Shown here piece after piece: positions 8,922 through 50,714 of a stretch of 64,000 bases of DNA. A program made the position numbers and the translations under genes. The stretch is from Mesorhizobium sp. WSM3862. GTDB lineage: Bacteria > Pseudomonadota > Alphaproteobacteria > Rhizobiales > Rhizobiaceae. The stretch's first letter is position 1, and each line of letters starts with the position of its first letter. The notes beneath the pieces were generated by a model. The model worked only from the letters and a program-made list of their open reading frames with translations, had not been told where the DNA came from and made no database searches. The stretch spans positions 124,001-188,000 of the forward strand of contig NZ_NSGE01000002.1 of NCBI RefSeq assembly GCF_002294985.1, in the 5' to 3' direction.

Positions 8922-9100
8922 GAGTTTGGAGGCGGTGCGCGCGCGACAAGGGCAGGGCGCGTAAGGCAAGATAAAGGCACCGCCTCCCGTAGGCGGCCAA
9001 GTATCTGTCTGCACATCGTTTTTCCAGGAGGCAGCTGGCGGCGTCAGGAGGCTGCGGCGCCTAAACGGTTGATCTGGCTTTGGATTACCCGGAGGCCGGC

Positions 9101-11071
9101 ATGCAGGACGATGAATTCAGGCCGAAGCTCGGCAAGATCGGGTCGCGCGGATCGAAAGCAGGCAAACGCTTCGCCACTCAGATCCGGACAGCGATCAACA
9201 GGGCCGGCGGCCGGCTGCAACGCGATGGTCGCTTCACCGGAAGCCGGGCAGGGCGGGGAGGGGCGGCCGCAGCGCTGCTCAAGTCACGCGACCGCTACGC
9301 TGCCTTTCGGCTGCGACGTGTCGTCGTCAAGGCACGGGTCGTCAAACTGGCCGGCAAGGGTTCGGACGGAGCGCGCGCACACCTGCGCTATCTTCAGCGC
9401 GACGGCGTCACCCGCGAAGGCGATCCTGGCGAGCTCTATGGCGCCGACAGCGACCGCGTCGACGGCAAGGCATTCATCGATCGCGCGGACGGAGACGGCC
9501 ATCAGTTCCGCTTCATCGTCGCAGCCGAAGATGGCATCGAGTATGAGGACCTCAAGCCGCTGACTCGGCGCCTCATGGCTCAGATGGAAGAGGACCTCGG
9601 CACCAAGCTCGACTGGGTCGCCGTCGACCATTTCAACACCGGTCATCCGCACAGCCACATCATCGTGCGTGGCAAGGACGACCGCGGGGAGAACCTCGTC
9701 ATCGCGCGTGAGTATATTTCGAGCGGCATCCGCGAGCGCGCTGCCGAGCTGGTCAGCCTCGATCTCGGTCCACTCACCGATCGCGAGATCGAGCAGCGCC
9801 TGCGCCAGGAAATGGAGCAGGAACGCTTCACCAGCATCGACCGGCAACTGCTGCGCATGCGTGACGATGACGGTCTTGTTTCGACAAACGGCCGCGACAC
9901 CTTTCGCCAGACGCTGCATCAGGGCCGGCTTCGCAAGCTGGAGCGCATGGGTCTGGCCGAGGACGTCGGCGCTGGCTCCTGGCGACTCGACGGCGAGCTG
10001 GAAGCGACCCTGCGGCGTGCCGGCGATCGCGGCGACATCATCAGGACCATGCATCGCGAGCTGGCCGGCAAGGGGCTCGCGCGCAGTGCCGCCGACTGCG
10101 TGATCCACGATCGATCCGGTGAGCCGGCCCAGCCCGTCGTCGGCCGCGTCGTCGCTCGCGGGCTCGCCGACGAAATCAATGACCGGCAATATCTTCTCGT
10201 CGACGGCGTTGACGGTAAAAGCCATTGGATCGACATCGGCAAAGGTGAGGCCACCGAACCGATGCCAGAAGGCTGCATCGTGCGTGCCACCCCGAGGAGC
10301 ACCGAGCCGAGGCAGGTCGACCGTACTGTCGCCGAGATCGCCGCCGCCCATGGCGGCCGTTACGACGCTGATATCCACCTGAAGCATGAGCCATCCGCCA
10401 CCGAGAGCTTTGCGCAAACGCATGTCCGGCGGCTGGAGGCGATCCGCCGCGCGACCGGCGGCATCGAGCGAGAGCCGAACGGCACTTGGCTGGTCGCGCC
10501 GGACCATCTCGATCGTGTCGCGGAATACGAGCGCCAGCGGGCCAGGGCCGAGCCTGTCGTTGTCAACAGGCTGTCATCAATGCCGCTGGAGCACCAAGTC
10601 AGCTTTGAAGGTGCCACCTGGCTCGACCGGGAACTGGTTGCCGACGGACCAGAGCGGTTGCGCAACTCAGGCTTCGGGCATGAGGTCCGGGAGGCGCAAG
10701 CCAGCAGGCGGCAGTGGCTGATCGCTCAAGGCCTCGCGCGCGAAGAGCAGGATCGGATCGTCTACCGCCCCAACATGCTTTCGATCCTGCGGCAGCGTGA
10801 GTTGAACCGTGTTGCCGGCCAACTGTCGGCGGAACTTCGTCTGCCCTATGCTGAAGCGCGATCCGGAGAACGAGTAGAGGGTACGCTCCGCCGCTCCGTC
10901 GAGCTTGCCAGCGGCAAATATGCCGTGATCGAGAAGTCGCGCGAGTTCACACTGGTGCCATGGCGACCGGTGCTAGAGCGACACATCGGCAAGGAGGTGT
11001 CCGGGATCATGCGCGGGGAGGGGATTTCCTGGGCGATCGGCCGGCAAAGGAGTGGGCCAAGCGTGTCATAG
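9101..11071 (+). CDS. rlxS: RlxS-like relaxase (VirD2-type with DUF3363)
   Basis: 656-residue relaxase that nicks oriT and pilots the transferred strand. The N-terminal relaxase domain carries the metal-binding histidine cluster in DHFNTGHPHSHIIVRG (~residues 178-195); the large remainder is the DUF3363 region typical of this relaxase class in rhizobial symbiosis ICEs. The ATG at 9101 is preferred over an in-frame TTG at 9080 because GGAGG sits 7 bp before it. The gene follows the rdfS/traF/transglycosylase group after ~180 bp, a spacer that would be a reasonable place for a promoter or oriT but shows no obvious inverted repeat. The frame is intact to a stop at 11071. Confidence 0.88.
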   Translation: MQDDEFRPKLGKIGSRGSKAGKRFATQIRTAINRAGGRLQRDGRFTGSRAGRGGAAAALLKSRDRYAAFRLRRVVVKARVVKLAGKGSDGARAHLRYLQRDGVTREGDPGELYGADSDRVDGKAFIDRADGDGHQFRFIVAAEDGIEYEDLKPLTRRLMAQMEEDLGTKLDWVAVDHFNTGHPHSHIIVRGKDDRGENLVIAREYISSGIRERAAELVSLDLGPLTDREIEQRLRQEMEQERFTSIDRQLLRMRDDDGLVSTNGRDTFRQTLHQGRLRKLERMGLAEDVGAGSWRLDGELEATLRRAGDRGDIIRTMHRELAGKGLARSAADCVIHDRSGEPAQPVVGRVVARGLADEINDRQYLLVDGVDGKSHWIDIGKGEATEPMPEGCIVRATPRSTEPRQVDRTVAEIAAAHGGRYDADIHLKHEPSATESFAQTHVRRLEAIRRATGGIEREPNGTWLVAPDHLDRVAEYERQRARAEPVVVNRLSSMPLEHQVSFEGATWLDRELVADGPERLRNSGFGHEVREAQASRRQWLIAQGLAREEQDRIVYRPNMLSILRQRELNRVAGQLSAELRLPYAEARSGERVEGTLRRSVELASGKYAVIEKSREFTLVPWRPVLERHIGKEVSGIMRGEGISWAIGRQRSGPSVS

Positions 11072-11133: not shown

Positions 11134-12693
11134 TTAGGAGCCGGAGACATCGCTTAGCTGCTCAACGTTCTTGCTATATTTGCGCCTGTAAGCGGCAATG
11201 AAATCGCCGTCGCTGCAGATGCAGCGGCCGCTGGAATCTTTGGCCTTCGGATCATGCAAATGAGAGCCAAGGGGGCGCAGAAGATTCACCCGAGTGCTCG
11301 TCGTCGGGCTCATGGGAAAACCCGCACTATGTTTGACCAGCTCCGCGGCAAGCATAATCCCGGCAAGCGCTGACTGAAAGGCCATCGGAACCACGGTTCG
11401 AACGAGGCGATTTCCATCGCTGAGCTGGAACACCAGACCGCCGCAGATCGCCTGCTGATAAAAGGAGCGCAGGGGCTGGCCAACAAACGGCGCTAGCGGT
11501 TCAAACGGCACAGCCATCGCAGTAGCCACCCGAATGACAAAGTCGTTGGGAACTCCGGCATTGGTCTGCAGCAGCATTTTCACCTGCTCGTGTGCTTCCG
11601 GTATTCCGAGTTCCTCGGCAATCAGCTGGTGCTCGTCCTTGGATTTTCCAGACGGCAGGTACATGCAACAAAGGCAAGCCCGGCTGTCGTCGAAACCATG
11701 CCGGGAGATACCGAGATCGTGCTCCTGGGTCCAGGCATTCGCGATCCATCGGGGCAGAGCACCTTGGACAGCGAGACGGTCGGCGGCGGTGTCAAGCGCC
11801 ACACCCACTTGGTCGAAGACCCAATTGCCCCTGCGCATAACATATTCTGCCCACTTCAACGGGTGCGCCTCAACATCGAGGGCGGTCGATCGAAGGGCGG
11901 TGGTTGCAAGGACTGCCTTGGACATGCCTATCTCCGCCTGGCCGGCCAGTGCGTAGCGCTGCAGGTTTGAGAGCTCGATCGTTTCGTGATCGATTACATG
12001 CAGGCGACCCGAGAGGCCGGGTTGTCTCGCTAGGGTCCAAAGCGAGCCATGGCCTATCGCGCCGAGCCCAACGAGGTGCGTTTCGCCAAGGTCGACAGGG
12101 AAGTCGATCGGGCCTGCCTCGCCGGCTTTGGTATTGTCGTAGCTGTATAACGAGAGGTCGATGGTTTCGTCCAACTCGGCGCCGGTCAGCTGGGCGGCGA
12201 AAATGGTTCGAAAGACATTGGCGGCGCCGAAGCAACTGGCGGCGCCAGCTCCATAGGGCAGCAAACTTGGGCCAGAGCCCACCGGGTCCGTACGCGACAG
12301 CTTGGCCGACCAACCGTCCGATCCCATGAAAAAGGTCGGGCACCGGAGTGATGGGCGCGTTACCCCTGCGACTACGCAGACCGTGGCAAACTTGCCAGAA
12401 CGCCGGATTCCGACTTTTGGATTGATCGACTTTGCCAAGCGCTCCAGCGCTTGGGTTTGAGAATTGGCCGCACTGTCCAACGGGAGTATTGCCAGAACTG
12501 GGTAGAGTCTGGCGAGCAATCTCACCGTAAGATCTAGTGTCGCCTGGCCTTCGGGGCAGGAAGCGGCCTGATCGTCGAAGGCGACGGCCACGACCTGCTT
12601 TTCAAGAGCGGCTTTGAAGTCTCCCAGATGAAAATCGGCTAGGACCTGAGATGCCGCCGTAGCGGCACGGTCGATGAAGTTAGCGAATGCCAT
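11134..12693 (-). CDS. E1-like ThiF-family activating enzyme of a bacterial Ubl operon
   Basis: 519-residue protein with a C-terminal ThiF/E1 adenylation domain: nucleotide-binding GLGAIGHG at 209-216, the acidic strand LHVIDHETIELSNLQRY (231-247), and a cysteine cluster ACLCC at 339-343 that may supply the thioester cysteine and/or zinc ligands. The first ~190 residues form a separate domain I do not recognise. E1 enzymes adenylate the C-terminal glycine of a ubiquitin-like protein and pass it to an E2. The gene is last in a - strand operon Ubl-E2-JAMM-E1 with a 3-bp gap to the peptidase gene. Such operons are known from comparative genomics, and related Bil/Bub systems act against phages; this one's role is inferred. 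Confidence 0.85.
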   Translation of the reverse strand: MAFANFIDRAATAASQVLADFHLGDFKAALEKQVVAVAFDDQAASCPEGQATLDLTVRLLARLYPVLAILPLDSAANSQTQALERLAKSINPKVGIRRSGKFATVCVVAGVTRPSLRCPTFFMGSDGWSAKLSRTDPVGSGPSLLPYGAGAASCFGAANVFRTIFAAQLTGAELDETIDLSLYSYDNTKAGEAGPIDFPVDLGETHLVGLGAIGHGSLWTLARQPGLSGRLHVIDHETIELSNLQRYALAGQAEIGMSKAVLATTALRSTALDVEAHPLKWAEYVMRRGNWVFDQVGVALDTAADRLAVQGALPRWIANAWTQEHDLGISRHGFDDSRACLCCMYLPSGKSKDEHQLIAEELGIPEAHEQVKMLLQTNAGVPNDFVIRVATAMAVPFEPLAPFVGQPLRSFYQQAICGGLVFQLSDGNRLVRTVVPMAFQSALAGIMLAAELVKHSAGFPMSPTTSTRVNLLRPLGSHLHDPKAKDSSGRCICSDGDFIAAYRRKYSKNVEQLSDVSGS

Positions 12694-12696
12694 TAT

Positions 12697-13185
12697 TCAA
12701 CTCGTTATCGTGATCATTCGCGACAGTGCCGCGGAAGGGAGCGCATTCCAGTTGGCCTTTCCGTCAAGCCGATAGGCGGCAACCCGAGCAAAATCAAAAG
12801 GCTCGCGGGCGAAATTCGGCACTACGAGCGACAAGCAGCCCACCGTGGTTGCTATCGCGTAGGCGTCATCCGTTGTCGAATGGTACGCCCGGCCCGGATG
12901 ACTATGGATCTGCGCCAGGAGCGTCAGGCCACGTCTGTAGAGCCAAACATTGAGCCGGTGCAGTTCTTCGGCAGGAACCATCACGCATACGCCGTCGCTC
13001 GTCCGGATGTGACGTTGCGCCGGGATGACCGTTTCTGTTACGGCAAAGTGCTGGTCTTGCTGAACGCCGACCCAGAGCGCCATGCCTTCATAGCCCTGCT
13101 GTCCAACGGAGCGCAGATGCGCCTGTACAGCGGACACACAGTCTCGGGGGAGGTCAACTGTCCTGACGTCCTCCAGAGCGGTCAT
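12697..13185 (-). CDS. JAMM/MPN (Mov34) deubiquitinase-like peptidase
   Basis: 162-residue metalloprotease of the JAB/JAMM family, expected to cut the ubiquitin-like protein from its precursor or conjugates. The metal-site signature is complete: a glutamate in GYEGMALWVG (Glu34) and HSHPGRAYHSTTD (His94, His96, Ser103, Asp106). The frame extends upstream to 13329, but the start at 13185 is chosen because it makes a 4-bp ATGA overlap with the E2-like gene and begins just before the conserved domain. Because the Ubl already ends in Gly-Gly, the enzyme probably removes conjugates rather than maturing a precursor. Confidence 0.85.
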   Translation of the reverse strand: MTALEDVRTVDLPRDCVSAVQAHLRSVGQQGYEGMALWVGVQQDQHFAVTETVIPAQRHIRTSDGVCVMVPAEELHRLNVWLYRRGLTLLAQIHSHPGRAYHSTTDDAYAIATTVGCLSLVVPNFAREPFDFARVAAYRLDGKANWNALPSAALSRMITITS

Positions 13186-13790
13186 TCCGGGATGGCTGGC
13201 AGGGGTGCTGCCAGCCCCACCACTGAAATTTGGAGCTGAAGCTGCTCTACTGGAGTGAGTCCGTATTTGATTATTTGGTACAGGATGAAGGCCAAACAGC
13301 CTTCTCCAGAACCCCGGTGGAGAAGCCATGAATCACCTGAATGGGCTGGATTGTCGTGGTATTCCCGCACGCCTGCCATGCACAAGAAGGGCGCGTGTTC
13401 CATACTATTGGCCTGGATGAAGTCCGTCAGCTGCACGGTATTCTGCGGCAAGACCGGAACAATCTCCGTTGGGGGTGCGGGTAGAGGCGACCGTCTCAGC
13501 ATCTTAAGCTGTAGATCCTTGCGGGCAATCGGCTGGCGCCTAAATGGGTCGACGAAGACTACTGAGGGAGGTCGTAGGTCGTAGTTGGAGAAGTCGATCT
13601 CGGCAGCTGCACCGATTACCTGTGGCTTTAACTTCGGCGGCGCAAAGATGAAGAAGGCGTTCGGGAAGACTGCTTCGATCAGGAAGCATCCCTGCGCCCG
13701 ATAAACACCCGCTTGTCCAAGGAACCAGCCGATCTCCCGATCAAACTTCGCTCGGGAGACCTCCGGATCCACAGTTTGGGGTTCAGCCAC
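13182..13790 (-). CDS. Predicted E2-like Ubl-conjugating enzyme
   Basis: 202-residue protein placed between the Ubl and JAMM genes, where prokaryotic operons of this type encode an E2-fold protein. A strand-rich core (CFLIEAVFPNAFFIFAPP, then PPSVVFVDPF) is followed by APFLCMAGVREYHDNPAH, whose cysteine (Cys137) and histidines are the best candidate thioester site, and by SGDSWLLHR. Overall similarity to eukaryotic E2 proteins cannot be judged by eye, so the assignment rests on context, fold-like pattern and the conserved cysteine. It starts with GTG at 13790, overlapping the last 8 bp of the Ubl gene, and overlaps the peptidase gene by 4 bp. Confidence 0.7.
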   Translation of the reverse strand: MAEPQTVDPEVSRAKFDREIGWFLGQAGVYRAQGCFLIEAVFPNAFFIFAPPKLKPQVIGAAAEIDFSNYDLRPPSVVFVDPFRRQPIARKDLQLKMLRRSPLPAPPTEIVPVLPQNTVQLTDFIQANSMEHAPFLCMAGVREYHDNPAHSGDSWLLHRGSGEGCLAFILYQIIKYGLTPVEQLQLQISVVGLAAPLPAIPE

Positions 13791-14079
13791 CTGCGACGCC
13801 CGCCTTCAGGCTGAGGAACAGGGTCACAGCGTTCACGAAACCGAAATCGCTAACCTTCTTGTCGACGTCGAGCAAGTTGCCGGCCTCATCCTTGCACTCC
13901 CAATTCTCGGCCGGTTGGGCAACATTCTGCGTGTTCTCAAGGGCTTTGGTACGAATGACGTGAAGCGGCTGGTTGGGATTGGCTTCGACCTGCGTGGGCT
14001 GGCCGTTCACCACTACCGTGATCTCGATCTTGCCTGGTCCGCCGCCGTGATTATCGCTCTTACCCGAATCCTTCGACAT
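13783..14079 (-). CDS. Ubiquitin-like modifier with C-terminal Gly-Gly (DUF2604-like)
   Basis: 98-residue protein with a disordered Gly/Ser/Asp-rich N-terminus (~1-16) and one beta-grasp-like domain: IEITVVVNGQPTQVEANPNQ, then a helix, ENWECKDEAGNLLD, and a final strand. It ends in Val-Ala-Gly-Gly directly before the stop, the form ready for E1 activation without processing. The start at 14079 has GGAG about 10 bp upstream; a longer frame to 14166 adds only low-quality sequence. It is the first gene of the Ubl-E2-JAMM-E1 operon and is likely its conjugated modifier. Assignment to DUF2604 is by recall of family features. Confidence 0.8.
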   Translation of the reverse strand: MSKDSGKSDNHGGGPGKIEITVVVNGQPTQVEANPNQPLHVIRTKALENTQNVAQPAENWECKDEAGNLLDVDKKVSDFGFVNAVTLFLSLKAGVAGG

Positions 14080-14799
14080 TTGTCCTACTCCTGTGGCTTG
14101 CCAACCCGCCCCCCCGGGCTCTGTTCCCACCTGCCAGTGAGACCGTCGGTCTTCAATCGTCCACACGGCGCCACGACCGCGAGTACGCGAAAGACAGGGG
14201 ATAAGCTACCGAATCGGTGCCAGCTCTTTTATGCGTGACTTGAGCGGCAAGTAAACTGGCCAAAATTGCTCTTCACAACTATAATCGATTAGAGCAATGC
14301 GAAAATATTGGCGACACGCCGGCTGATGTGCTCTTTCACTCGCCTGCTCCACTTGCAGCGTGCAACGTTGGCTGGCGCCGTGCAAGTCCGGCGGCCGGTA
14401 TGATTTCATGTTCGACTGGGCAGGCGCTGTGATGATTTGGCTGGGGCGCCTTCTGGCCGCTGTAATCTCGACGCAGGGTTTGGCAACCACGCAGAGCTTT
14501 AGAGTTGGTGATCGCTCGGCCTATTCGAAAGGTGTCTCGGAAGCAGTCGCCGTGACCAACTCCGGATACCGCGATAGTCACGACGAGATGACGGGACGTG
14601 AGTGGTTGCACCGAACCGTGCTCCGGGTGCGCCCGAAGAGCGATGTTAGCCACCTAACCTATTACGAGTGGGAGCGAGTGGGAGTTAAACAACTGATAAG
14701 GCAACATTATCGTTCGTTGTGTTTGTGCGACAGGTACAGCGCTTTTTGCCTATTTCCGTTGCCAAAAGCGCCGCCATGAATCATCGTGTCTGAGATGAT
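14080..14799. other. 720-bp spacer upstream of the Ubl operon
   Basis: No gene is supported. Open frames on both strands (longest ~140 codons) lack a ribosome-binding site, a recognisable domain, or codon use like the neighbours. The lower GC content around 14210-14330 is where the promoter of the - strand Ubl operon would be expected. No terminal repeats or tRNA-like folds were found. Confidence 0.4.
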
Positions 14800-15810
14800 T
14801 CTGCGTCCCAAACCCTCTGTACGCCACGGGCCCTTCCCGGTGCCACGGCGGTCGCGCCGATCATGGCGGTGCCGGCCTGGCTGCGCCGGGCCATCCTGGA
14901 TGCGGAAACCCTTGCGGGCAAAGAGGTTGAGGAGGTCGCGCTCGCCGCCGGCGCCACCATTGGCGCGCTCGATGCGATGGTGCGTCGGCAGGAGCGGTGA
15001 GCTGGCGCCTGGCGGCAGCGGCTGGCGCTTTCGGCGGCCGCGGCAACGGCGAAGCAGGCCGGCCGCGTCGAGGATGAAAGCGCGCTGCGTGACGCCGTGC
15101 TGCTCACACGACCGAGCGATTTTTTGTCCGTCGGCCCCGCCGGATCGATGCTCCTGGCTTGGCGAAGGCTGGCCGGCACGCCTGCCGAGAAACTGCTGAC
15201 CGAGGCGAGCATCGGCGCGGTGCTGGATGACCTCGGTCTCCGCCGCGACGACGAGGTGGTCAGCGACCTGGCGGACGATCTTCGGCAGCTTTCCGCAGGT
15301 ATCGGAACGGTCGGCATGCTGACCGGCGCGTTCGCGACTGCCGAGAGATATGGTTTCGCACGAGCCTTCGGATGCTGGCTCGCCGACGCCCTGCTGGCGC
15401 AGCGGCTGGGCTGGGCACACGCGGTGCCGCTGCTGGGCGCTGAAGCGGCCTTGGGCGCAAGCGCTCGCCCGCGCCGATCGGCTCCGGCTCTGTGGCGACA
15501 AGCATTGAAATAAATCCTGAGCGTGCCAAAAGCCTGCTTGCGGCGCAGGCGCGCTGCGCGCTGCGCGCGATTGATCTTTCCGCTGAGCTCGAGCGCCGCG
15601 CGGACCGGCTGCTTGCCGTTGCGCCGAAACTCAGGGCCAAGGCGGCCGACGCTGTTGTCAACAAGCTCCTGTCCGACGATGCGATCGTTGCCTCGGAAAA
15701 GATCGCCGGCATGTCGACCGTGGGCTGCGCCGCCTGTTCGACCGTCTGGTCGAACTCGGCGCCGTGCGCGAGCTTTCCGGCCGCCCCGCATTCCGCATCT
15801 ACGGGCTGTG
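14800..15810 (+). pseudogene. DUF1403 family gene, disrupted by a stop and two frameshifts
   Basis: Pieces of one DUF1403-type protein (~330 codons) lie in order. The first runs from about 14866 through LDAMVRRQER to an in-frame TGA at 14998-15000, where a tryptophan codon would be expected (next residues AGAWRQRLAL). The second continues to LLGAEAALGA near 15460, where the frame shifts. The third covers LLAAQARCALRAIDLSAELERRAD to KIAGMS (15710). The last, SGRPAFRIYGL and a stop at 15808-15810, is displaced by a one-base loss near 15717. The start is not recoverable. DUF1403 genes commonly precede scpB on rhizobial plasmids and ICEs, as here. Confidence 0.75.
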
Positions 15811-38081: not shown

Positions 38082-41000
38082 ATGAGGTTGCCATTTCATT
38101 GGACGGTGGCTGTCGCCTTGGCGACAGCGCTGAGTGTTGCAGGCACCGCAACTGCCCAGGAATCCCGTTACTCTGCGCGGCAGGTTCAACAGGCCCTTGC
38201 TGAACATGGATACGATCTCGGGACCGCGGACGGAATTTGGGGACGTCGGTCCATCAGTGCGCTCAAGGCTTTCCAGAAAGCGAGCAATCTTCCTCAAACC
38301 GGTGCTTTGGACCAAGCGACGTCAGCGGCACTTTTTCCGCAACCCCAGGTGACGCATGGCCCGTTGACGCCCATAGCCACGGATGCGCTCCCGTCGACTT
38401 TGGATCAGCCTGGTGTTCCAACGAAGACAACTCCACAGACAAGTAAAGTGGAAGCCGGGAAGGCTGGTGGCGATGTCCACCAGCCACCGCCTTTGCCGAC
38501 GCATGCCGAGGGATCGCCAGGCAAGTCCGATCGCTTGGTGCTGGAGCCCGACAAGGTCGGAGTTGGGCCAATCCCTACGCCGCGTTTGATCTATCTGGGC
38601 CTGCTAGGGCTGGCAGCCGCGCTCTTCTTCCTAGGAAGACGCCGAAGAAGGCCTGCCGCGGATTTGGTTCCAGCGAGATCCGAAAGTAAGGGCAGCGAAC
38701 CTGATCGCAGTCTCAACCGGTCGACCAGAACCAACAGGCACCTCTTGGTTCGGAACGAGCCCATCGTTCCAGCCAGCATTGCCGCTGAAAGGCAGCCAGT
38801 CGAACAAACGCCAGTCCTGTCACCGGATATCGCGGCTTCTCTGACGGCACATAATAGAGCTGTCCACGATTTCATCCGTCAGAGAGGAGCAATCCAACGG
38901 CCCAAATCAAGGGCCAATCCTTCAGCCAGGCAGCCGGCCGCTCCCGCAAAAACGAGTTGGCAAAGCACAGAGGCCACCAAGGTCACCCCGGTAACGACAA
39001 CAAACAAGGGTTCGCTCGCATCGCATAATGCTCAGATAGCGGAATCCATTCGACAACGCGGTCCTGTTCTCATTCCCCCTACGGCCGCAACGGATCAGAC
39101 GCAGCCGTCGGGTTCCGAAAGCAAGGACAGCCAACTTGATAGCGGTCTCGACCAATCGGCCAGAAGCAACAGGCACCTCTTGGTTCGGAACGGTCCGATC
39201 GTTCCAGCCAACATTGCTGCTGGAAGGCAGCCCGTCGAACAAAAGCCGGTCCTGCCGCCAGATATTGCGGCTTCTCTTGCGGTACATAACGCCGCCGTCC
39301 ACGATTTCATCAAACAAAGAGGTGCACTCCAACCGTCCAAATCAGGGGCCAACCCTTCAGCAAGGCAGTCGGCCGCTCCCGCAAAAGCGGGTTGGCGAGG
39401 CATAGAGGCAACCAAGGTCGCCCCGGCAGTGAGAGCATCCGAAGGATCGCTCGCATCGCATAATGCTCAGGTTTCGGATTTCATTCGGCAACGCGGCCCT
39501 ATGCTTGTTCCCAACACGGCCGGGTCGGACCAGCCGCGGTGGTTCGACCGGCTACCCGCCGTGCGAGCGAGCCCCGCCGCGCGCCAGTCGGCACATTGGA
39601 TTCCTCCGAATACAGCAGCAATGGTGGGAAGCCATGACATTCCCGCGGGCATGATCTATTTAGGCGAGCACCTGCCGAGGCAGGGCAGTTCAACCGACCC
39701 GGAGAACTGCCTGATCGACCCGAGATTGACCGTGGGCGCTCACGGCGATCCGCTGGGTCAGACGATGGGCTACTGGCCGTCCTACTCGAGCATTTCGCCC
39801 GCGGCGCGAAAATCCTATCTGGACTGGCTTGCCGGATCGCGATCCGATCCCGACGCCTATATCGGATACGTGTTCCTCTACTTCTACGGTCTCGAACGCC
39901 GCCTCATGTTGGAGGAAAGCCCACCCGACGCTGATGGTGTCGTTGCCGAGGTTTGCCGGCTATTGCAGGTGTATGGAGGGAATGGCTCGTTCAAGCGCTA
40001 TGCTGGTGAGTTGCTTTCGGCTTACCAGCTAAAATCGGCTCAGTTGCCGGAAAAGTTTGATCTGGAGGTCCAGGAAAATAGCTACGAGATCCCGATAATG
40101 CTGAAGGTCGCCCTCGGGATGAGGGTGCGCAGCGGAGAGGCGATCGAGCCGGACCTTTTGTTGGCTTACGTCCTTGCCGACCCCGAAACGAGGGTGCGAA
40201 CGCCGGCGCGACGGGCACAGACTCTCTTGCGAGAGCTGTTCGCGGAAGCGGTGGAGAAGCAGCATCCAAATGGCGTGCGCGTTCCGGCCGCCGGAGTGCG
40301 GAAACTGAAGGTCAACTACCGTGCCTGCAGCGGAACGTTCGATCTTGCAATTCGCCCCTTTGGCGGAGACCTGCCGGACATCACAAACCGCAGCGAACCG
40401 ATAGGCGGTGCACGCCGCATCTTCGACGACTGCACGGATCGGCTCGACGACTATAGCCGCATGCTCGGGCGTTCGGAGGGACTGAAGCCTAGCCTTGCGG
40501 CTGTGGCTCAGCTGCCCTTGGGTTTGCGCGTGAAGAATTGTGAAACGCTCGCTGGCAGCCCGTTGAGGCGGCTCCAGGAACTGGCGAGTAATGACGCCCT
40601 AATATCAATTCAGAAACTGGCTGAATTGGCTGGGATGGATCCCGACAAAATTGCCGCGCGAGCGAAACAGAAAGAACTTTCCGCAATTCTGGGAGCCTTT
40701 GGCTATGCTCATACCGCCGCACCTTCCTTTTCCCTGAAGTCCGCAAAACCAGACGAACTGGCGATGGTTTTTGTCCTAGAACGCGAAGCTGACGCTGATC
40801 CCGAACCGAGCCAGCATTACCGGCCCATGCAACTGTCAATCATGCTCGGCATGGTGATCGCCTTCGCCGATGGTCTGCTCCACCCCTTGGAGGAACGCAG
40901 GCTCTTCGACAAGGTCGATGGAGCGCCCGGCCTGTCGAGGGACGAACGCGTACGCCTCAAAGCCGAGATCAAAGTCTGCGCCGCCGACGCCAGCCGCGTC

Positions 41001-41720
41001 GTGGATTGGACCAAACGTATAGGAGACGTGCCAGGGGACCGCCGCGAAGATCTTGCCGATGAATTGGTGGCAATCGCTGCGGCAGATGGAACCCTTCACG
41101 CACGAGAAGTGTCGAAGCTCGACAAACTGTTCAGGCTGATGGATCTCGACGAAGCCTCCCTCTATTCTCGCCTGCATGGCAGTGTTGCGCCGCAGACCAG
41201 GCGGGGTGACGGAAATGACGATCTTCCCCTGGTTATTCCCGCCGGAATTCAGCCGCCCGGCATTCCCGTGTCGCCGGCGTCTCCTAGAGCGCCTGCGACG
41301 CGCGTCGACATCTCGCGTCTCGAAGCGATCCGACGCGAAACCCGGAGCACGTCCAGCGTCCTTGCCGATATCTTTGTGGACGAAGCAGAGCCGCCGATCG
41401 AGCTTCAGTCCGCGACCGAGGAAATCGAGACGTCCAATGGGGATGCGCGCTTCGACGGGCTGGAGCGACGCTATGGTTGGCTCCTGTCGCAACTGATCGA
41501 ACAGAGAACCTGGACAGCTTCCGATTTCGAGCGTTTGGTCCGCGGTGCCGATCTGATGCCGGGTGCGGCGAAGCAAGCACTAAACGATTGGTCGCTCGAC
41601 CGCTTCGACGAACTGGTCTTGGACGGCCAGGACCCTGTCATCGTCAACGCCAGCCTGTTTTCCGAGGCTACTGCCCAGTCTCCGTCGCTTACCGTCTCTG
41701 TCGAAGGAATGTCAGCATGA
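38082..41720 (+). CDS. TerB-domain protein with signal sequence, peptidoglycan-binding domain and internal repeats
   Basis: 1212-residue multidomain protein. It has an N-terminal signal sequence (~1-26), a PG_binding_1 domain (YSARQVQQALAEHGYDLG... to ~86), a membrane helix followed by a basic patch (LIYLGLLGLAAALFFLGRRRRR, ~168-190), two near-identical tandem blocks (~205-330 and ~350-480, each with RHLLVRN.PIVPA.IAA and VHDFI.QRGA), a TerB-N domain (from ~565, WPSYSSISPAARKSYLDWLAG), a TerB domain (~905-1025) and a TerB-C region at the end. TerB modules coordinate metals and occur in stress and defence complexes. The ATG has GGAGG ~15 bp upstream. It overlaps the ATPase gene by 4 bp. Confidence 0.82.
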   Translation: MRLPFHWTVAVALATALSVAGTATAQESRYSARQVQQALAEHGYDLGTADGIWGRRSISALKAFQKASNLPQTGALDQATSAALFPQPQVTHGPLTPIATDALPSTLDQPGVPTKTTPQTSKVEAGKAGGDVHQPPPLPTHAEGSPGKSDRLVLEPDKVGVGPIPTPRLIYLGLLGLAAALFFLGRRRRRPAADLVPARSESKGSEPDRSLNRSTRTNRHLLVRNEPIVPASIAAERQPVEQTPVLSPDIAASLTAHNRAVHDFIRQRGAIQRPKSRANPSARQPAAPAKTSWQSTEATKVTPVTTTNKGSLASHNAQIAESIRQRGPVLIPPTAATDQTQPSGSESKDSQLDSGLDQSARSNRHLLVRNGPIVPANIAAGRQPVEQKPVLPPDIAASLAVHNAAVHDFIKQRGALQPSKSGANPSARQSAAPAKAGWRGIEATKVAPAVRASEGSLASHNAQVSDFIRQRGPMLVPNTAGSDQPRWFDRLPAVRASPAARQSAHWIPPNTAAMVGSHDIPAGMIYLGEHLPRQGSSTDPENCLIDPRLTVGAHGDPLGQTMGYWPSYSSISPAARKSYLDWLAGSRSDPDAYIGYVFLYFYGLERRLMLEESPPDADGVVAEVCRLLQVYGGNGSFKRYAGELLSAYQLKSAQLPEKFDLEVQENSYEIPIMLKVALGMRVRSGEAIEPDLLLAYVLADPETRVRTPARRAQTLLRELFAEAVEKQHPNGVRVPAAGVRKLKVNYRACSGTFDLAIRPFGGDLPDITNRSEPIGGARRIFDDCTDRLDDYSRMLGRSEGLKPSLAAVAQLPLGLRVKNCETLAGSPLRRLQELASNDALISIQKLAELAGMDPDKIAARAKQKELSAILGAFGYAHTAAPSFSLKSAKPDELAMVFVLEREADADPEPSQHYRPMQLSIMLGMVIAFADGLLHPLEERRLFDKVDGAPGLSRDERVRLKAEIKVCAADASRVVDWTKRIGDVPGDRREDLADELVAIAAADGTLHAREVSKLDKLFRLMDLDEASLYSRLHGSVAPQTRRGDGNDDLPLVIPAGIQPPGIPVSPASPRAPATRVDISRLEAIRRETRSTSSVLADIFVDEAEPPIELQSATEEIETSNGDARFDGLERRYGWLLSQLIEQRTWTASDFERLVRGADLMPGAAKQALNDWSLDRFDELVLDGQDPVIVNASLFSEATAQSPSLTVSVEGMSA

Positions 41721-43039
41721 CGACAAAAGCCCCACCTATCAAACCAAGAGATCGAGACACCATTATCAGCGCCTTGCGTGCCGGTGTCGTGCCGCGCATC
41801 GGTCTCCAGCATATTCAGGTGGGTCGCCAGCGCGAGATCGAAGCGCTGATCCAGGACATCGAGCGGATTGGCAACGGCGGGTCGAGTATCCGTCTCGTCA
41901 TCGGCGCCTATGGTGCCGGCAAGACCTTCTTCCTGTTTCTCATCAGGCAAATCGCACTTCAGCGCAAGCTTGCCGTCTGCCAGGCCGACCTTTCTCCGGA
42001 TCGCCGCATCCACGCCACCGGCGGGCAGGCGCGTACGCTCTATGCCGAGCTCGCCACCAGTCTTGCGACCCGCACGGCACCAGACGGAGGCGCGCTCAGA
42101 AACATTCTGGAGAGCTACATACAAAAAGCATCCGAACGCGCTTCCTCAAGCGGGACGACTATTGAAATCGCCATCAAGGAACGCCTCGGCGATCTTCGCG
42201 AGATGGTCGGAGGCTATGATTTCGCAACCGTCATCGTTGCCTATGCGCGGGGCTACGAGGAAGGAAACAGCAATTTGCAGGACGCCGCGCTGCGTTGGTT
42301 GCGCGGCGAATACACGACCAAGACCGAGGCGCGAGGCGATCTGGGCGTGCGTACCATCATCGACGACGCGTCCTTCTATGATGGCTTGAGACTGCTCGCC
42401 CGTTTTACACGGCTCGCTGGTTTCGGCGGCCTGTTGGTCTGCCTCGACGAACTCGTCAATCTCTACAAGCTGCAGAGCGCCCAGGCCCGCAAACAGAATT
42501 ACGAGCAGATCCTGCGCATCTTCAACGATGTCCTGCAGGGCACGACGCAGGGTATCGGTTTCATTCTGGGCGGCACACCGGAATTCCTGCTCGACACGCG
42601 GCGCGGCCTTTACTCCTACGAGGCCTTGCAGTCCCGCCTTGCTGGGAACAGTTTTGCCGGCAATGGCCTGGCCGACTATTCCGGTCCGGTGGTCAACCTG
42701 CCGAACCTGACCCCGGAGGAACTCTACCATCTTCTGGAGCGACTGCGCGACGTCTTCGCGGCCGGCGATCAGGAAAAATGGCTGGTTCCGGACGAGGCAC
42801 TCCACGCCTTCATGGACCATTGCGCCAACCGGATCGGCGAGGCTTATTTTCGGACCCCGCGCAACACGGTGATAGCCTTCGTCGATCTGCTCGCGATTCT
42901 CCAGCAAAACCCCGGTACAGATTGGAAAGACATGCTCGGCGCAGTGGACGTGGCGGAAGATCGAGGCGGTGCAGGCGACCAGCCCATCGACGACGTCGAA
43001 GGGGGAGCGGACGACGAGCTTGCAGCCCTCCGCATTTGA
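41717..43039 (+). CDS. BrxD-like P-loop ATPase (DUF2791 type)
   Basis: 440-residue AAA/STAND-type ATPase of the kind found with BREX (BrxD) and TerB systems: Walker A GAYGAGKT (63-70), Walker B GGLLVCLDEL (~236-245), a sensor-like GFILGGTPEFLLD and a C-terminal helical region with FRTPRNTVIAFVDLLAILQQNP, typical of this family. It probably drives DNA- or protein-remodelling by the neighbouring helicase and TerB protein. It starts at ATG 41717, overlapping the TerB gene by 4 bp, and the helicase frame begins 70 bp before its stop, so the three genes are one translational unit. The family is proposed to act in anti-phage defence. Confidence 0.85.
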   Translation: MTTKAPPIKPRDRDTIISALRAGVVPRIGLQHIQVGRQREIEALIQDIERIGNGGSSIRLVIGAYGAGKTFFLFLIRQIALQRKLAVCQADLSPDRRIHATGGQARTLYAELATSLATRTAPDGGALRNILESYIQKASERASSSGTTIEIAIKERLGDLREMVGGYDFATVIVAYARGYEEGNSNLQDAALRWLRGEYTTKTEARGDLGVRTIIDDASFYDGLRLLARFTRLAGFGGLLVCLDELVNLYKLQSAQARKQNYEQILRIFNDVLQGTTQGIGFILGGTPEFLLDTRRGLYSYEALQSRLAGNSFAGNGLADYSGPVVNLPNLTPEELYHLLERLRDVFAAGDQEKWLVPDEALHAFMDHCANRIGEAYFRTPRNTVIAFVDLLAILQQNPGTDWKDMLGAVDVAEDRGGAGDQPIDDVEGGADDELAALRI

Positions 43040-45278
43040 CAAGCTTTCCGAGCCCGTCAGGCGGTGGATTTGGCAGCGGAAATGGCCGTCGCTACGGGAT
43101 GTCCAGGAAAAGGCTATTCCGGCCATCCTCGCGGGCGGCGATGTCGTGATTTCCGCGCGCACTGCCGCCGGCAAGACCGAAGCCGCCTTCCTGCCATTGT
43201 TGACCCGGCATGCCGAACACGCGGGGAGCGCCGACGGGTTCGCCATCCTCTATGTCAGTCCGCTAAAGGCGCTGATCAACGATCAGCACCGGCGGCTGGA
43301 AAGCCTGTGCGAAGGCAGCGGCGTACTCCTGCACAAATGGCATGGCGACGTGTCGGCGGACGCCAAAACCCGTGCACGAAAACGACCTTCGGGTATCGTG
43401 CTGATCACTCCGGAATCGCTTGAGGCGTTGCTCGTCCGCAGAGGCGCTGAGGTAGCGCAGATGTTTTCGCGCCTCGATGCGGTGGTCATCGATGAGTTGC
43501 ATGCCTTCATCGGCACCGAGCGCGGTATGCAGTTGCAGTCGATCCTCAACAGGATCGAGGTAGCGACCGCGCGAGACCGCATCGATCGAATTGGGCTTTC
43601 AGCAACACTCGGTGACATGAGCCTGGCTGCCGAGGCGCTGCGGCCCGGCAAAGGGGCCAGCGTCACGATCGTGGAAGGCAAAGACGAGGGGAACGGGGTC
43701 CGTTTGCAGATCCGGGGTTATCTGCTGGACGGCACCGCCCCAGGCGATCTCACGGCCACCACAGACGATAGCGATCCGCCGGGAAAGCCGACCGAACCTT
43801 TTGAACAATCGACAGTGCCAGCGGCGCTTGCGGCCGACTTGTTTCGTCTGCTGCGCGGCCAGAGCAATCTGCTGTTTGCTGGATCTCGCGCCAATGTCGA
43901 GGTTTATGCCGACATGCTGCGTTCGATGTGCGACGAAGCGAGCTTTCCAAATGAGTTCTTCCCGCATCATGGCAATCTCGCAAGGGCCATGCGCGAGGAG
44001 GTCGAAGCGCGGCTTCGAGACGATCCGCGCCCGACTACGGCGGTCGCGACCACCACCCTGGAACTCGGAATGGACATTGGCGAGGTGGAGACTATCGCGC
44101 AGATCGGACCGGGCTTTTCGGTCGCGTCACTTCGCCAGCGCCTCGGCCGATCCGGCCGCAGGGCCGGAAAGCCTGCAACGCTGCGTATGTTCGTCATCGA
44201 GCCTCCCATTGGTGAGGGACGACACCCAATTGACCGGCTTCGCCTGGATCTGGTTCAGTCGATTGCGATGGTTGAGTGCCTGAGAGCGGGATGGTGTGAG
44301 CCGCCATTGCCAGCTGGGCTACATCTTTCAACGCTCCTCCATCAAGTGATGGCACTGATCGTGCAGACCGGGGGCGTAAGCCCGACGGTCGCCTGGAAAC
44401 TGTTGTGCGAGCGCGGCCCCTTCCGGGCCGTGGACAAGACGCTGTTTGCCGAATTGCTTCGGTGCATGGCCATGCCTGAAAACCAGTTGCTTGAGCAGTC
44501 GCCGGAAGGCTTGCTCATGATCGGAGAGACCGGGGAAAAGATCACGGAATCGTACGAATTCTATGCTGTTTTCGCCACGGAACGGGAATATCGGATCATT
44601 CACGATGCACGCACGCTCGGCACCTATCCGCTGAGCTCTCCCCTTGCACGTGGCGAAACGATCATTTTTGCGGGGCGCCGCTGGCAAGTCATCGAAATTG
44701 ATGATCGCGCTCGGGCTATCATGGTAAAGCCGACACGGGCTGGAAAGCCACCGCATTTCAATGGCAAGGGGGCGGCCATCCACGATCACGTGGTGGCATC
44801 GATGCGCGCGGTTCTCGCATCCGATGAGGCCTACCCCTATCTCGATCCTGCCGCGAAGCTACTGCTGGATGAAACGCGCAGTTCGCACCTGGACCTGCAA
44901 CTGGATCGCCGTTCAATCATTGCGCATGGGGAGGGGGTCCTGATTTTCCCCTGGGTCGGAACCAGGAAGCTGCAGACCCTAACCCTGGCATTGCTGGCCC
45001 GCGAGTTCAAAGCATCGCATTTCGGGCATGCCATTGAGCTTCAGGAATGCGAGGCAGCGAAGGTTATGGAAGCTCTGCAGGATATAGCTGGCTCGCCGGC
45101 ACCAGACGGGCAAGAACTTGCTGCACGACTAGCACAGCCCGCATTGGCTAAGTTCGACACGTTCCTGAGCGATCACTTGATGACATTGGTCACGATGGTG
45201 GAAAGAATCAGCGCCAAGGACTTGCCCCTGATCGCCGCCAACGCGCTGGGAAATCATACGACGCATGAAGTCGCATGA
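42969..45278 (+). CDS. Lhr-like superfamily 2 helicase
   Basis: 769-residue DEAD/DEAH-type helicase: Q-motif region WPSLRDVQEKAIPAILAGGD, Walker A ARTAAGKTE (motif I, ~63-71), motif II VVIDELHAF (DELH, ~174), motif III GLSATLGD, then TTTLELGMDIGEVE and SLRQRLGRSGRRAG (motifs V and VI, ~360-395). The C-terminal ~350 residues resemble the Lhr-type accessory region. Such helicases accompany BrxD-like ATPases in BREX type 2 and TerB-linked systems. The first codon used is GTG 42969; TTG at 43020 is an alternative, starting just before the folded domain. Co-translated with the ATPase gene. Confidence 0.85.
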   Translation: MQATSPSTTSKGERTTSLQPSAFDKLSEPVRRWIWQRKWPSLRDVQEKAIPAILAGGDVVISARTAAGKTEAAFLPLLTRHAEHAGSADGFAILYVSPLKALINDQHRRLESLCEGSGVLLHKWHGDVSADAKTRARKRPSGIVLITPESLEALLVRRGAEVAQMFSRLDAVVIDELHAFIGTERGMQLQSILNRIEVATARDRIDRIGLSATLGDMSLAAEALRPGKGASVTIVEGKDEGNGVRLQIRGYLLDGTAPGDLTATTDDSDPPGKPTEPFEQSTVPAALAADLFRLLRGQSNLLFAGSRANVEVYADMLRSMCDEASFPNEFFPHHGNLARAMREEVEARLRDDPRPTTAVATTTLELGMDIGEVETIAQIGPGFSVASLRQRLGRSGRRAGKPATLRMFVIEPPIGEGRHPIDRLRLDLVQSIAMVECLRAGWCEPPLPAGLHLSTLLHQVMALIVQTGGVSPTVAWKLLCERGPFRAVDKTLFAELLRCMAMPENQLLEQSPEGLLMIGETGEKITESYEFYAVFATEREYRIIHDARTLGTYPLSSPLARGETIIFAGRRWQVIEIDDRARAIMVKPTRAGKPPHFNGKGAAIHDHVVASMRAVLASDEAYPYLDPAAKLLLDETRSSHLDLQLDRRSIIAHGEGVLIFPWVGTRKLQTLTLALLAREFKASHFGHAIELQECEAAKVMEALQDIAGSPAPDGQELAARLAQPALAKFDTFLSDHLMTLVTMVERISAKDLPLIAANALGNHTTHEVA

Positions 45279-46025: not shown

Positions 46026-46157
46026 GAACACGCCTTGATTGATTCATTCATCCGACTAGATTGTGCCGGCGCTTTCATCTAGGCGCAGATTCGTGATCCT
46101 GCCGACGATAGGCATGGCTTCTCCGGATCAGAAACCCCGTCACCTGGAGTGCTTCGG

Positions 46158-49154: not shown

Positions 49155-49454
49155 TGGCGGGATATTGCGGCGTTGCTTGTTTTGTAACGTCCGCTCTTAG
49201 TTGATTTCGTCGCCGGTTTGGGTTGGCGCGCGAGCAGGTGCGCAACTCTACTTGACGCTATAGCCTGACGGGCACATTGAGGAAGGTCCAGGAACGCCGG
49301 TATGTCCGTCGCTTCCTGTATAGCTCGCAATGTCGTCGTGGGCAATTTCTAACCGTTGAGGATCGGCGGCAAAATCAGCCAAAACCATCTATCGCGAAAT
49401 TCATCTATCGAGCAGCGGTCGAACACCCGTATGTTTGTGATCGGAGACTGCTCA
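49155..49454. other. 300-bp spacer after trlF
   Basis: No gene is supported; the frames present are short and antisense or lack initiation sites. It should hold the terminator of trlF and the promoter of the YhaO/YhaN-like pair, but no clear stem-T-run or -35/-10 pair was found. Confidence 0.35.
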
Positions 49455-50714
49455 ATGGCATTTCGATTCGTACACACCGCTGATATCCATCTCGACTCGC
49501 CACTGCGTTCGCTGGCGATGCGAAACCCCGACCTTGCCGAACTCGTCGGCGACGCCAGCCGCCAGGCATTGATTTCCATAGTTGACCTCTGCCTGGCGGA
49601 GCGTGTCGATGCGCTGGTCATTGCCGGCGATCTCTATGATGGCGACCAGACGTCGATGAAAACCGCCCGCTTCCTGGCGTCGCAGATGACACGGCTGCAC
49701 CAGGCCGGCATCAGGGTCTTGAAGATCCGTGGCAATCATGACGCAATGTCGCGGATATCGAAACAGCTGGTATTCCCGGACACGGTAACGATCTTCGGCG
49801 GCCGTCCCCAGTCAGTGCTGCAGACAGCGGGCGGGCTCGACGTCATGTTTCATGGCTTGAGCTTTGCTAGCCCCAAGGCGCCGGAAAGTCTGCTCCCCAA
49901 GTATTCAGCTCCGCGTGAAGGTGCGGTCAATGTCGGCATCATGCATACGAGCCTGGCCGGATCGCCCGGCCACGACGTCTATGCCCCCTGCAGCATCGCT
50001 GACCTGCACAGCCATGGCTTCGACTACTGGGCGCTTGGGCACATCCATGTCCGCCAAGTCCACGCCGGGGCGAGCACCGTGGTGATGCCAGGAATTCCGC
50101 AGGGCAGGGACATCAACGAGGCCGGCGGGAAATCCGTCACCCTGGTGACGATACGAGACGACCGCACCGTCGAGATCGAGGAAAGACTAACCAGTATCGT
50201 GCAATTCGAGCGGGTGAGCGTCGACGTGACCGAAACGGTGGAATGGTCCGAAGTCGTCGGGCGAGTCCGCTCCGCGCTCGAAGATGTGCGCGCCTCCGTC
50301 AGCTCCCGCCATGCCGTGGTCCGTCTCGGCGTGACCGGGGCGTCACCTTTATCCTGGGCACTGATCCGTGACCGCGACCTGCTGCTCGCAGAAGCTGAGC
50401 AGGTCGCGGAACAGACGGGGGACACCTGGGTGGAGAAGCTCGAGCTTAACGTTTCTCCATCCGCACCCGAAACATCCGAGGGCGTCGCTGATCCGATTTT
50501 CGAACTCGCTCAATCCATGCACGCCGATGCCAGCTCGGACGCCTTCCGTGCTGAGGCGAGAGCGTTTGTCGAGAAGATGGTCGCCGATCTTCCGGCCGCC
50601 GGGCGCGATTTCGCCGGTAAGGACGAGGCTGGGCTGGAGTTGTTCCTCGACAGGGTGCTCGCCAGCGGCGCTGACCTGGTCACGGCCCGCCTCAAGGTCG
50701 GCGGGTCACAATGA
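49455..50714 (+). CDS. YhaO/SbcD-like DNA repair phosphoesterase
   Basis: 419-residue metallophosphoesterase of the SbcD/Mre11 group: FVHTADIHLDSPL (metal motif I, residues ~4-16), LVIAGDLYDG (II), KIRGNHDAMS (III), then GIMHTSLAG and ALGHIHVRQ (IV/V). These enzymes are nucleases that work with an SMC-like ATPase partner. The C-terminal ~170 residues are a capping region. The start at 49455 follows GGAG by ~10 bp. It overlaps the next gene, its ATPase partner, by 4 bp. The pair resembles B. subtilis YhaO-YhaN and may complement the helicase and ATPase genes upstream. Confidence 0.86.
   Translation: MAFRFVHTADIHLDSPLRSLAMRNPDLAELVGDASRQALISIVDLCLAERVDALVIAGDLYDGDQTSMKTARFLASQMTRLHQAGIRVLKIRGNHDAMSRISKQLVFPDTVTIFGGRPQSVLQTAGGLDVMFHGLSFASPKAPESLLPKYSAPREGAVNVGIMHTSLAGSPGHDVYAPCSIADLHSHGFDYWALGHIHVRQVHAGASTVVMPGIPQGRDINEAGGKSVTLVTIRDDRTVEIEERLTSIVQFERVSVDVTETVEWSEVVGRVRSALEDVRASVSSRHAVVRLGVTGASPLSWALIRDRDLLLAEAEQVAEQTGDTWVEKLELNVSPSAPETSEGVADPIFELAQSMHADASSDAFRAEARAFVEKMVADLPAAGRDFAGKDEAGLELFLDRVLASGADLVTARLKVGGSQ

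What the first reader, a model, noticed from the sequence alone, without database searches (positions are those of the whole stretch)
11134..14079. Complete bacterial ubiquitin-like conjugation operon on a symbiosis ICE
Ubl ending in Gly-Gly, E2-like, JAMM peptidase and E1 genes overlap or nearly touch. The Ubl is a single-domain, pre-matured type, and the E1 has an extra ~190-residue N-terminal domain. Related Bil/Bub operons give phage defence; this four-gene order on a rhizobial symbiosis element may be a less studied subtype.
Basis: partly seen in the sequence, partly recalled or inferred. Interest (0 to 1): 0.75.

Follow-up and report, generated by a model that had tools for sequence, protein, structure and literature searches.

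The report
Rhizobial Bil ubiquitin-like defence operon
This is an intact four-gene bacterial ubiquitin-like tagging operon, a close cousin of one whose enzymes already have solved structures, carried near nodulation genes and probably used against phages; it is a known kind of system, not a new subtype.

Summary
Window 11134-14079, minus strand, holds four tightly packed intact genes: ubiquitin-like protein, E2, JAMM peptidase, E1. The 'less studied subtype' reading is not. All four proteins match, essentially end to end, the Protein Data Bank chains named BilA-BilD (8TYX/8TYY/8TYZ/8TZ0), in the canonical BilABCD order. The 'extra' E1 N-terminus is the inactive adenylation half of BilD. 'Pre-matured Gly-Gly' is doubtful: 45 of 51 BilA C-termini read AGVAGA, as does the solved protein, and 4 read AGVAGG, so the conserved Gly is G97. 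The symbiosis setting holds: a nodA gene lies 30 kb away on the contig, a DUF3363 relaxase gene is adjacent, and in the window's genus 55 of 55 genomes with this lineage carry nifH. Best explanation: an anti-phage Bil operon riding on a symbiosis element. One further point: bilB (E2) alleles have a different history from bilA/bilD (tree congruence rejected), as if the E2 were exchanged separately. That is a lead, not proof of function.

The parts
13783..14079 (-). bilA: single beta-grasp ubiquitin-like protein (DUF2604), 98 aa, C-terminus ...LKAGVAGG; conserved Gly is G97
   Evidence: C-terminus comparison
13182..13790 (-). bilB: E2 (Metal_CEHH), 202 aa, GTG start inside the end of bilA; C137, E143, H145, H150 present
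   Evidence: residue roles from PMC11354881 passage
12697..13185 (-). bilC: JAMM peptidase, 162 aa from Met49 of the 210-aa ORF; E33, H94, H96, S103, D106 invariant
11134..12693 (-). bilD: E1, 519 aa; N-terminal inactive adenylation half (Pfam Prok-E2_C 38-166), ThiF-type active half from about 205, catalytic-site Cys C417
   Evidence: C417 role from PMC11354881 passage
14080..14320 (-). conserved upstream region: palindrome TAATCGATTA at 14282-14291, possible promoter TTTACT-18-TAAAAG (14226-14255), inverted repeat ACCGATTCGGT at 14208-14218; function unknown
   Evidence: Alignment A1 of 11 loci; its 19-base core occurs once in the genome; no covariation, no Rfam match; promoter read by eye, no scan run
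9080..11071 (+). neighbour, convergent: DUF3363 relaxase gene (rlxS-like), the only DUF3363 match in the genome; marks a mobile element
   Evidence: DUF3363 491.6 bits; the Pfam Relaxase domain matches just under its cut-off, 22.3 against 24.6

Best explanation
A complete BilABCD operon carried as cargo of a rhizobial symbiosis element. BilC trims the last residue of BilA after G97 where needed and can also remove conjugates. BilD adenylates BilA and takes it on its cysteine (C417). BilB takes it on C137 and, with no E3-like gene among the four, passes it to a target protein. In infected cells the target is most likely a phage virion protein such as the central tail fibre, so that progeny are tailless or non-infectious. 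Shown here: the genes, orthology to the solved proteins, presence of catalytic residues, purifying selection, genomic setting. Inferred: activity, target and phage protection.
For: End-to-end matches to PDB chains Ubl(BilA) 6.3e-54, E2(BilB) 6.2e-95, DUB(BilC) 7.1e-98, E1(BilD) E=0. PADLOC BilC 1.9e-18 and BilD 1e-15. Catalytic residues invariant in 19 operons (the 20 aligned less degenerate L051): BilB C137/E143/H145/H150, BilC E33 (the residue mutated in the 8TYX chain) and HxH...SxxD, BilD C417. dN/dS 0.06-0.38 against ten relatives. 49 of 50 operons, window included, keep four full-length genes. A three-gene set matching Shango lies 24 kb away in the window. The discussion of one research paper and one review state that a Bil (ISG15-like) system, from Collimonas, attaches its Ubl to the phage central tail fibre (PMC11364771 passage; PMC12948488 passage).
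Against: No activity was measured. The phage work that I could see described is on a Collimonas operon, not this lineage; the primary papers are not held. Confinement to nifH-carrying strains would also fit a role in symbiosis or element maintenance. PADLOC gave no hit for the Ubl and the E2.
Confidence: 0.72

Rival explanations
1. Same enzymes, other purpose: the operon conjugates BilA to cell or plant-stage proteins and serves nodulation, bacteroid life or transfer of the symbiosis element rather than phage defence.
For: 55 of 55 genomes of the genus with this lineage carry nifH, against 45 of the other 91; in 7 of 7 genomes of 2-5 contigs with both, bil and nifH are on the same contig. It is next to the relaxase gene.
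Against: Cargo of one element travels together, so linkage alone predicts this. 45 nifH-positive genomes lack this lineage (one of them, G004, has a 49% relative), so it is not needed for symbiosis. The R. etli p42a relative has a TIR and a caspase-family gene downstream, a defence-like setting.
Confidence: 0.15
2. A separate, less studied subtype with a pre-matured Gly-Gly Ubl that needs no processing.
For: The window BilA does end in GG; 4 of 51 BilA C-termini do, window included.
Against: 45 of 51 end AGVAGA, as does the solved BilA; the window and L048-L050 are not sisters in the bilB or bilA+bilD tree; the last codon overlaps the bilB start, so one base (GGTGGC against GGTGCC) changes both proteins. 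All four proteins are orthologues of solved Bil proteins.
Confidence: 0.04
3. Intact-looking but idle passenger: a recent cassette that does nothing in this host.
For: Some relatives are degenerate (L051; stops in G024, G027, G057 and partial matches in G053, G054, G111).
Against: Four full-length genes in 49 of 50 operons, catalytic residues kept in the 19 examined, dN/dS well below 1.
Confidence: 0.09

Closest known systems
Bil operon whose proteins are solved as PDB 8TYX, 8TYY, 8TYZ, 8TZ0 (recalled as Ensifer aridi, Chambers et al. 2024; not readable here)
   Same: Single-domain 98-aa BilA and all four proteins matched essentially end to end
   Different: Window BilA ends GG not GA; bilB and the first half of bilC are more divergent from relatives than bilA and bilD are
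pNGR234a operon, Sinorhizobium fredii NGR234 (Iyer et al. 2006, Table 1 row 6c, by inference)
   Same: Same four genes and order, BilD 89% identical
   Different: Plasmid rather than an ICE-like contig; vapC/stbC genes upstream instead of the ScpB region
Collimonas Bil (phage central tail fibre conjugation)
   Same: Described as the same system type in passages; would work in the same way
   Different: Not fetched or aligned here; a review describes BilA with two Ubl domains (PMC11354881), the window BilA has one
Methylobacterium brachiatum BilA (PDB 8U38) and 9D5B
   Same: The last Ubl domain matches BilA residues 18-97 (E 2.7e-14 and 3.2e-14)
   Different: 243 and 261 aa, with further N-terminal domains
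Multi_ubiq / DUF6791-ThiF / DUF6527 locus (L002, same contig)
   Same: Also a predicted Ubl and E1 gene set
   Different: Different Ubl and E1 families, no Metal_CEHH protein found there; the only Metal_CEHH match in the genome is the Bil one

Membership tests
Bil (BilABCD) | Four genes in the order Ubl, E2, JAMM, E1 | tested here: met
Bil (BilABCD) | Orthology of each protein to proteins named BilA-D | tested here: met
   PADLOC BilC, BilD. PADLOC gave no hit for BilA and BilB
Bil (BilABCD) | E2 with the C-E-H-H set (Cys138, Glu144, His146, His151 in the published protein) | tested here: met
   C137, E143, H145, H150 (one residue shorter), invariant in 19 operons; reference residues
Bil (BilABCD) | JAMM zinc site and catalytic Glu | tested here: met
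   E33, H94, H96, S103, D106 invariant in 19 operons
Bil (BilABCD) | E1 with inactive plus active adenylation halves and catalytic Cys417 | tested here: met
   Prok-E2_C 38-166, ThiF 207-282, C417 invariant in 19 operons; description
Bil (BilABCD) | BilA with two Ubl domains (one review's wording; I do not count it as defining, because the chain deposited as BilA in 8TYX has 98 aa and one domain) | tested here: not met
Bil (BilABCD) | Ubl conjugation and phage protection | not testable with these tools
   Needs expression and phage assay
Bub operons | Bub gene set; often with CapW, CapH+CapP or CapK+CapS regulators | not tested
Type II CBASS (E1-E2 and JAB genes beside a CD-NTase) | E1 protein closer to the CBASS E1-E2 models than to BilD | tested here: not met
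   PADLOC E1-E2 9.4e-6 against BilD 1e-15; a CD-NTase was not searched for

The most novel reading that the evidence does not exclude
bilB, the E2, is the exchangeable specificity part of Bil: symbiosis elements keep swapping bilB alleles inside an otherwise shared operon, with a near-invariant active site and variable outer segments, because with no E3 the E2 chooses the phage target. This would be comparable to specificity subunits of restriction systems.
Probability: 0.25. Interest if true: 0.6.

Novelty: already known. Interest (0 to 1): 0.3.

Why it matters
It ties the lineage of the solved Bil proteins to the mobile elements that spread nitrogen-fixing symbiosis, which suggests that symbiosis elements carry their own phage protection. 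The bilB allele pattern makes a direct test possible of which Bil enzyme selects the target. The C-terminus comparison corrects a natural misreading (Gly-Gly = already mature).

Tried and rejected
Conserved leader as a structured RNA: RNAalifold gave 52 pairs, none with a two-sided change, and no Rfam match up to E 1; not supported. Leader as a regulon site: a 19-base core occurs once in the genome with up to 2 mismatches. Wide survey of DUF2604 in the class: 2 of 385 genomes, one of them the window's own, too few to use. bilB as simply hypervariable: the neighbouring gene rlxS has a similar dS (median 0.68 against 0.75 for bilB and 0.28 for bilD, 55 pairs of 11 loci; bilB exceeds rlxS in 40 of 55, bilD is below rlxS in 42 of 55), so the young part may be bilA/C/D rather than bilB the fast one; I keep only the claim of unlinked histories. 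Positive selection on bilB: dN/dS 0.12-0.32 as a gene average, not supported. Structure prediction was not used because orthologues are solved. Primary Bil and Bub papers are not held; I used passages from reviews and related papers only.

Full report
What is there. The four genes lie on the minus strand exactly at 11134-14079. They are packed as one operon: bilA 13783-14079, bilB 13182-13790 (8-nt overlap), bilC 12697-13185 (ATGA overlap), bilD 11134-12693 (3-nt gap). The 210-aa JAMM ORF is over-long; its Met49 is where the solved BilC chain begins. Pfam finds DUF2604, Metal_CEHH, Prok-JAB and Prok-E2_C plus ThiF. PADLOC finds BilC and BilD but nothing for the first two proteins. NCBIfam lists only adenylyltransferase and E1-type families for the E1, all below their cut-offs, and nothing for the other three. 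Metal_CEHH matches once in the genome.

What it is. Searching solved structures settles it. All four proteins match, essentially from end to end, the chains deposited as Ubl(BilA), E2(BilB), DUB(BilC) E33A Mutant and E1(BilD) in 8TYX, 8TYY, 8TYZ and 8TZ0 (E 6.3e-54, 6.2e-95, 7.1e-98 and 0). The source organism of those entries, Ensifer aridi, is recalled. The Ensifer aridi LMR001 locus fetched here (L028) is 90, 74, 91 and 91% identical for A, B, C and D, and its BilA aligns over all 98 residues of the 8TYX chain, down to the final Ala. A review gives the residues that matter (PMC11354881, passages): BilB Cys138, Glu144, His146, His151; BilD Cys417; [quoted passage not shown] The window has BilB C137/E143/H145/H150 (its BilB is one residue shorter there), BilC E33 with HxH...SxxD, and BilD C417; all are invariant in 19 operons, the 20 aligned less the degenerate L051.

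The Gly-Gly tail. Of 51 BilA C-termini read, 45 end AGVAGA, 4 AGVAGG (window, L048-L050), 1 (R. etli) ends at the Gly itself, and 1 (L051) is degenerate. G97 is invariant in the 19 operons and the position after it is not. The last codon overlaps the bilB start: GGTGGCTGA in the window reads Gly-Gly-stop for bilA and GTG-GCT for bilB, where the GA relatives have GGTGCC followed by TAA (29) or TGA (16). So the Gly-Gly looks like a one-base variant, not a separate pre-matured class. Whether BilC still removes G98 is not known.

Where it sits. Next to the operon, convergent, is a DUF3363 relaxase gene (9080-11071), the only DUF3363 match in the genome. On the same contig an intact nodA frame lies at C12:104443-105027, about 30 kb from bilD; a second nodA is on contig C2, where nifH also lies. 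Integrase, transfer genes and element ends were not looked for. The window's genus is unnamed in the genome tool; it is Mesorhizobium by inference, because the positions in two of its genomes (G134, G029) equal those in named Mesorhizobium records. In 146 genomes of the genus, BilD matches occur in 58 and nifH in 100; 56 of the 58 have nifH. Counting three genomes with only a 48-49% relative (G004, G104, G111) as lacking this lineage, 55 of 55 with it have nifH, against 45 of the other 91 (Fisher p 1.4e-12). Genomes are related, so the p value overstates the evidence. I tabulated twenty bil copies that share a contig with nifH, 67-787 kb apart (one of them, G209, from the family search; the largest value is on a 1.02-Mb plasmid record, shorter if it is circular). 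In the family sample, 3 of 22 genomes with nifH over the cut-off carry this lineage, and of the other 372 only one has any match, a partial 48% one. Among plasmids, 12 records have at least 80% of BilD, 8 of them at 89-93%, 3 Mesorhizobium and 5 Sinorhizobium. A three-gene set matching Shango SngA, SngB and SngC lies at 38082-45278, so the surroundings include another likely defence system.

How it probably works. From the published system: BilC exposes the C-terminal Gly, BilD activates, BilB transfers to a target (PMC11354881 passages); that BilC also removes conjugates is recalled. The discussion of a research paper (PMC11364771 passage) and a review (PMC12948488 passage) state that Bil, in the first case from Collimonas, attaches its Ubl to the phage central tail fibre; the first adds that tailless particles and phages with a non-functional fibre result. 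That this operon does so is inference. dN/dS against ten relatives is 0.14-0.38 for bilA, 0.12-0.32 for bilB, 0.06-0.14 for bilC and 0.12-0.22 for bilD: all are kept for function.

An unexpected pattern. The relatives come from one scan with six peptide patterns of BilD (47 loci) and from plasmids, so they are mostly close ones. 49 of 50 operons have four full-length genes (length limits 90, 195, 150 and 490 aa), 30 of them distinct in sequence. Of 435 pairs, 189 have dS below 0.3 in bilA+bilD; among these, bilB has dS above 0.6 in 88 and below 0.3 in 89, and bilC above 0.6 in 14. In L006/L007 and L026/L041, identity drops near the bilA/bilB border and recovers early in bilC. The bilB data reject the bilA+bilD tree and the reverse (logL differences 400 and 375, p-AU 3e-7 and 7e-4 with 10,000 replicates; 400 and 321 with 1,000). 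bilC rejects both other trees. In the window bilB and bilC are both divergent while bilA and bilD are close to other mesorhizobia. Among ten BilB, 27 of residues 141-170 are invariant, and the variable stretches are 21-30, 51-60, 101-120 and 181-200. A control against the bold reading: the neighbouring relaxase gene has a median dS of 0.68, like bilB (0.75) and unlike bilA, bilC and bilD (0.24, 0.27, 0.28), over 55 pairs. So either bilB was exchanged, or the other three were homogenised around it. The histories differ; the cause is open.

Comparison with print. Iyer et al. 2006 (PMC1779556, passages) described an operon group prototyped by the NGR234 megaplasmid, with a predicted metal-binding protein and E1 proteins with an additional N-terminal domain. 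Two papers on Mesorhizobium symbiosis islands (PMC7643969, PMC4070662; term searches in the main text) hold no 'ubiquitin' or 'ThiF'. My searches touching Bil and rhizobial defence listed no paper whose title or abstract start deals with bilB exchange or with Bil in symbiosis elements; some lists were capped (12 of 138), and the main Bil papers are not held, so this is weak evidence of absence.

Verdict. Observation confirmed; interpretation partly supported. It is a copy of a characterised system. Its symbiosis setting is real, and the bilB mosaic is the part that a specialist might find new.

Noticed in passing
L002 (own genome, contig C12 about 89-92.5 kb, outside the window): A second, unrelated ubiquitin-like gene set: Multi_ubiq protein, DUF6791-ThiF E1 and DUF6527 protein, some 43 kb from the Bil operon on the same contig.
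   Followed up: partly
window 38082-45278 (+): Three genes matching Shango SngA, SngB and SngC.
   Followed up: partly
window 46149-54181 (+): SMC-like ATPase, calcineurin-like phosphoesterase and AAA_27 ATPase genes in a row, perhaps another defence or SbcCD-like set; the first also matches several PADLOC ATPase models.
   Followed up: no
window 11055/11105-14314: In Sinorhizobium and Rhizobium loci (L028, L037, L040, L044-L047, L053) DNA similarity to the window is limited to this 3.2-kb stretch, as if the operon with its leader moved as a cassette.
   Followed up: partly
L007 about 11620-15720 and similar loci; L026, L039: The 3' end of the relaxase gene (window about 10952-11058 in L007 type) occurs twice, flanking a 3.9-kb (L007 type) or longer insert between bil and the relaxase gene.
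   Followed up: no
L054 4593-9623 (R. etli p42a): A 47% identical (BilD) Bil operon followed by TIR-domain and caspase-family genes.
   Followed up: no
window 14080-14320: The region upstream of bilA is conserved across genera, with two inverted repeats; no covariation, no Rfam match, one copy of its core in the genome.
   Followed up: partly
G074, G075 (single-contig genomes): Two bil copies and two nifH copies each, about 130 and 263-272 kb apart within each pair, as if two symbiosis islands were present.
   Followed up: no
L053 11612-11998, L054 5632-5997: Public annotation starts the JAMM gene late: similarity to BilC begins at its first residue in L053 (11510) and earlier than annotated in L054 (5542).
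   Followed up: no
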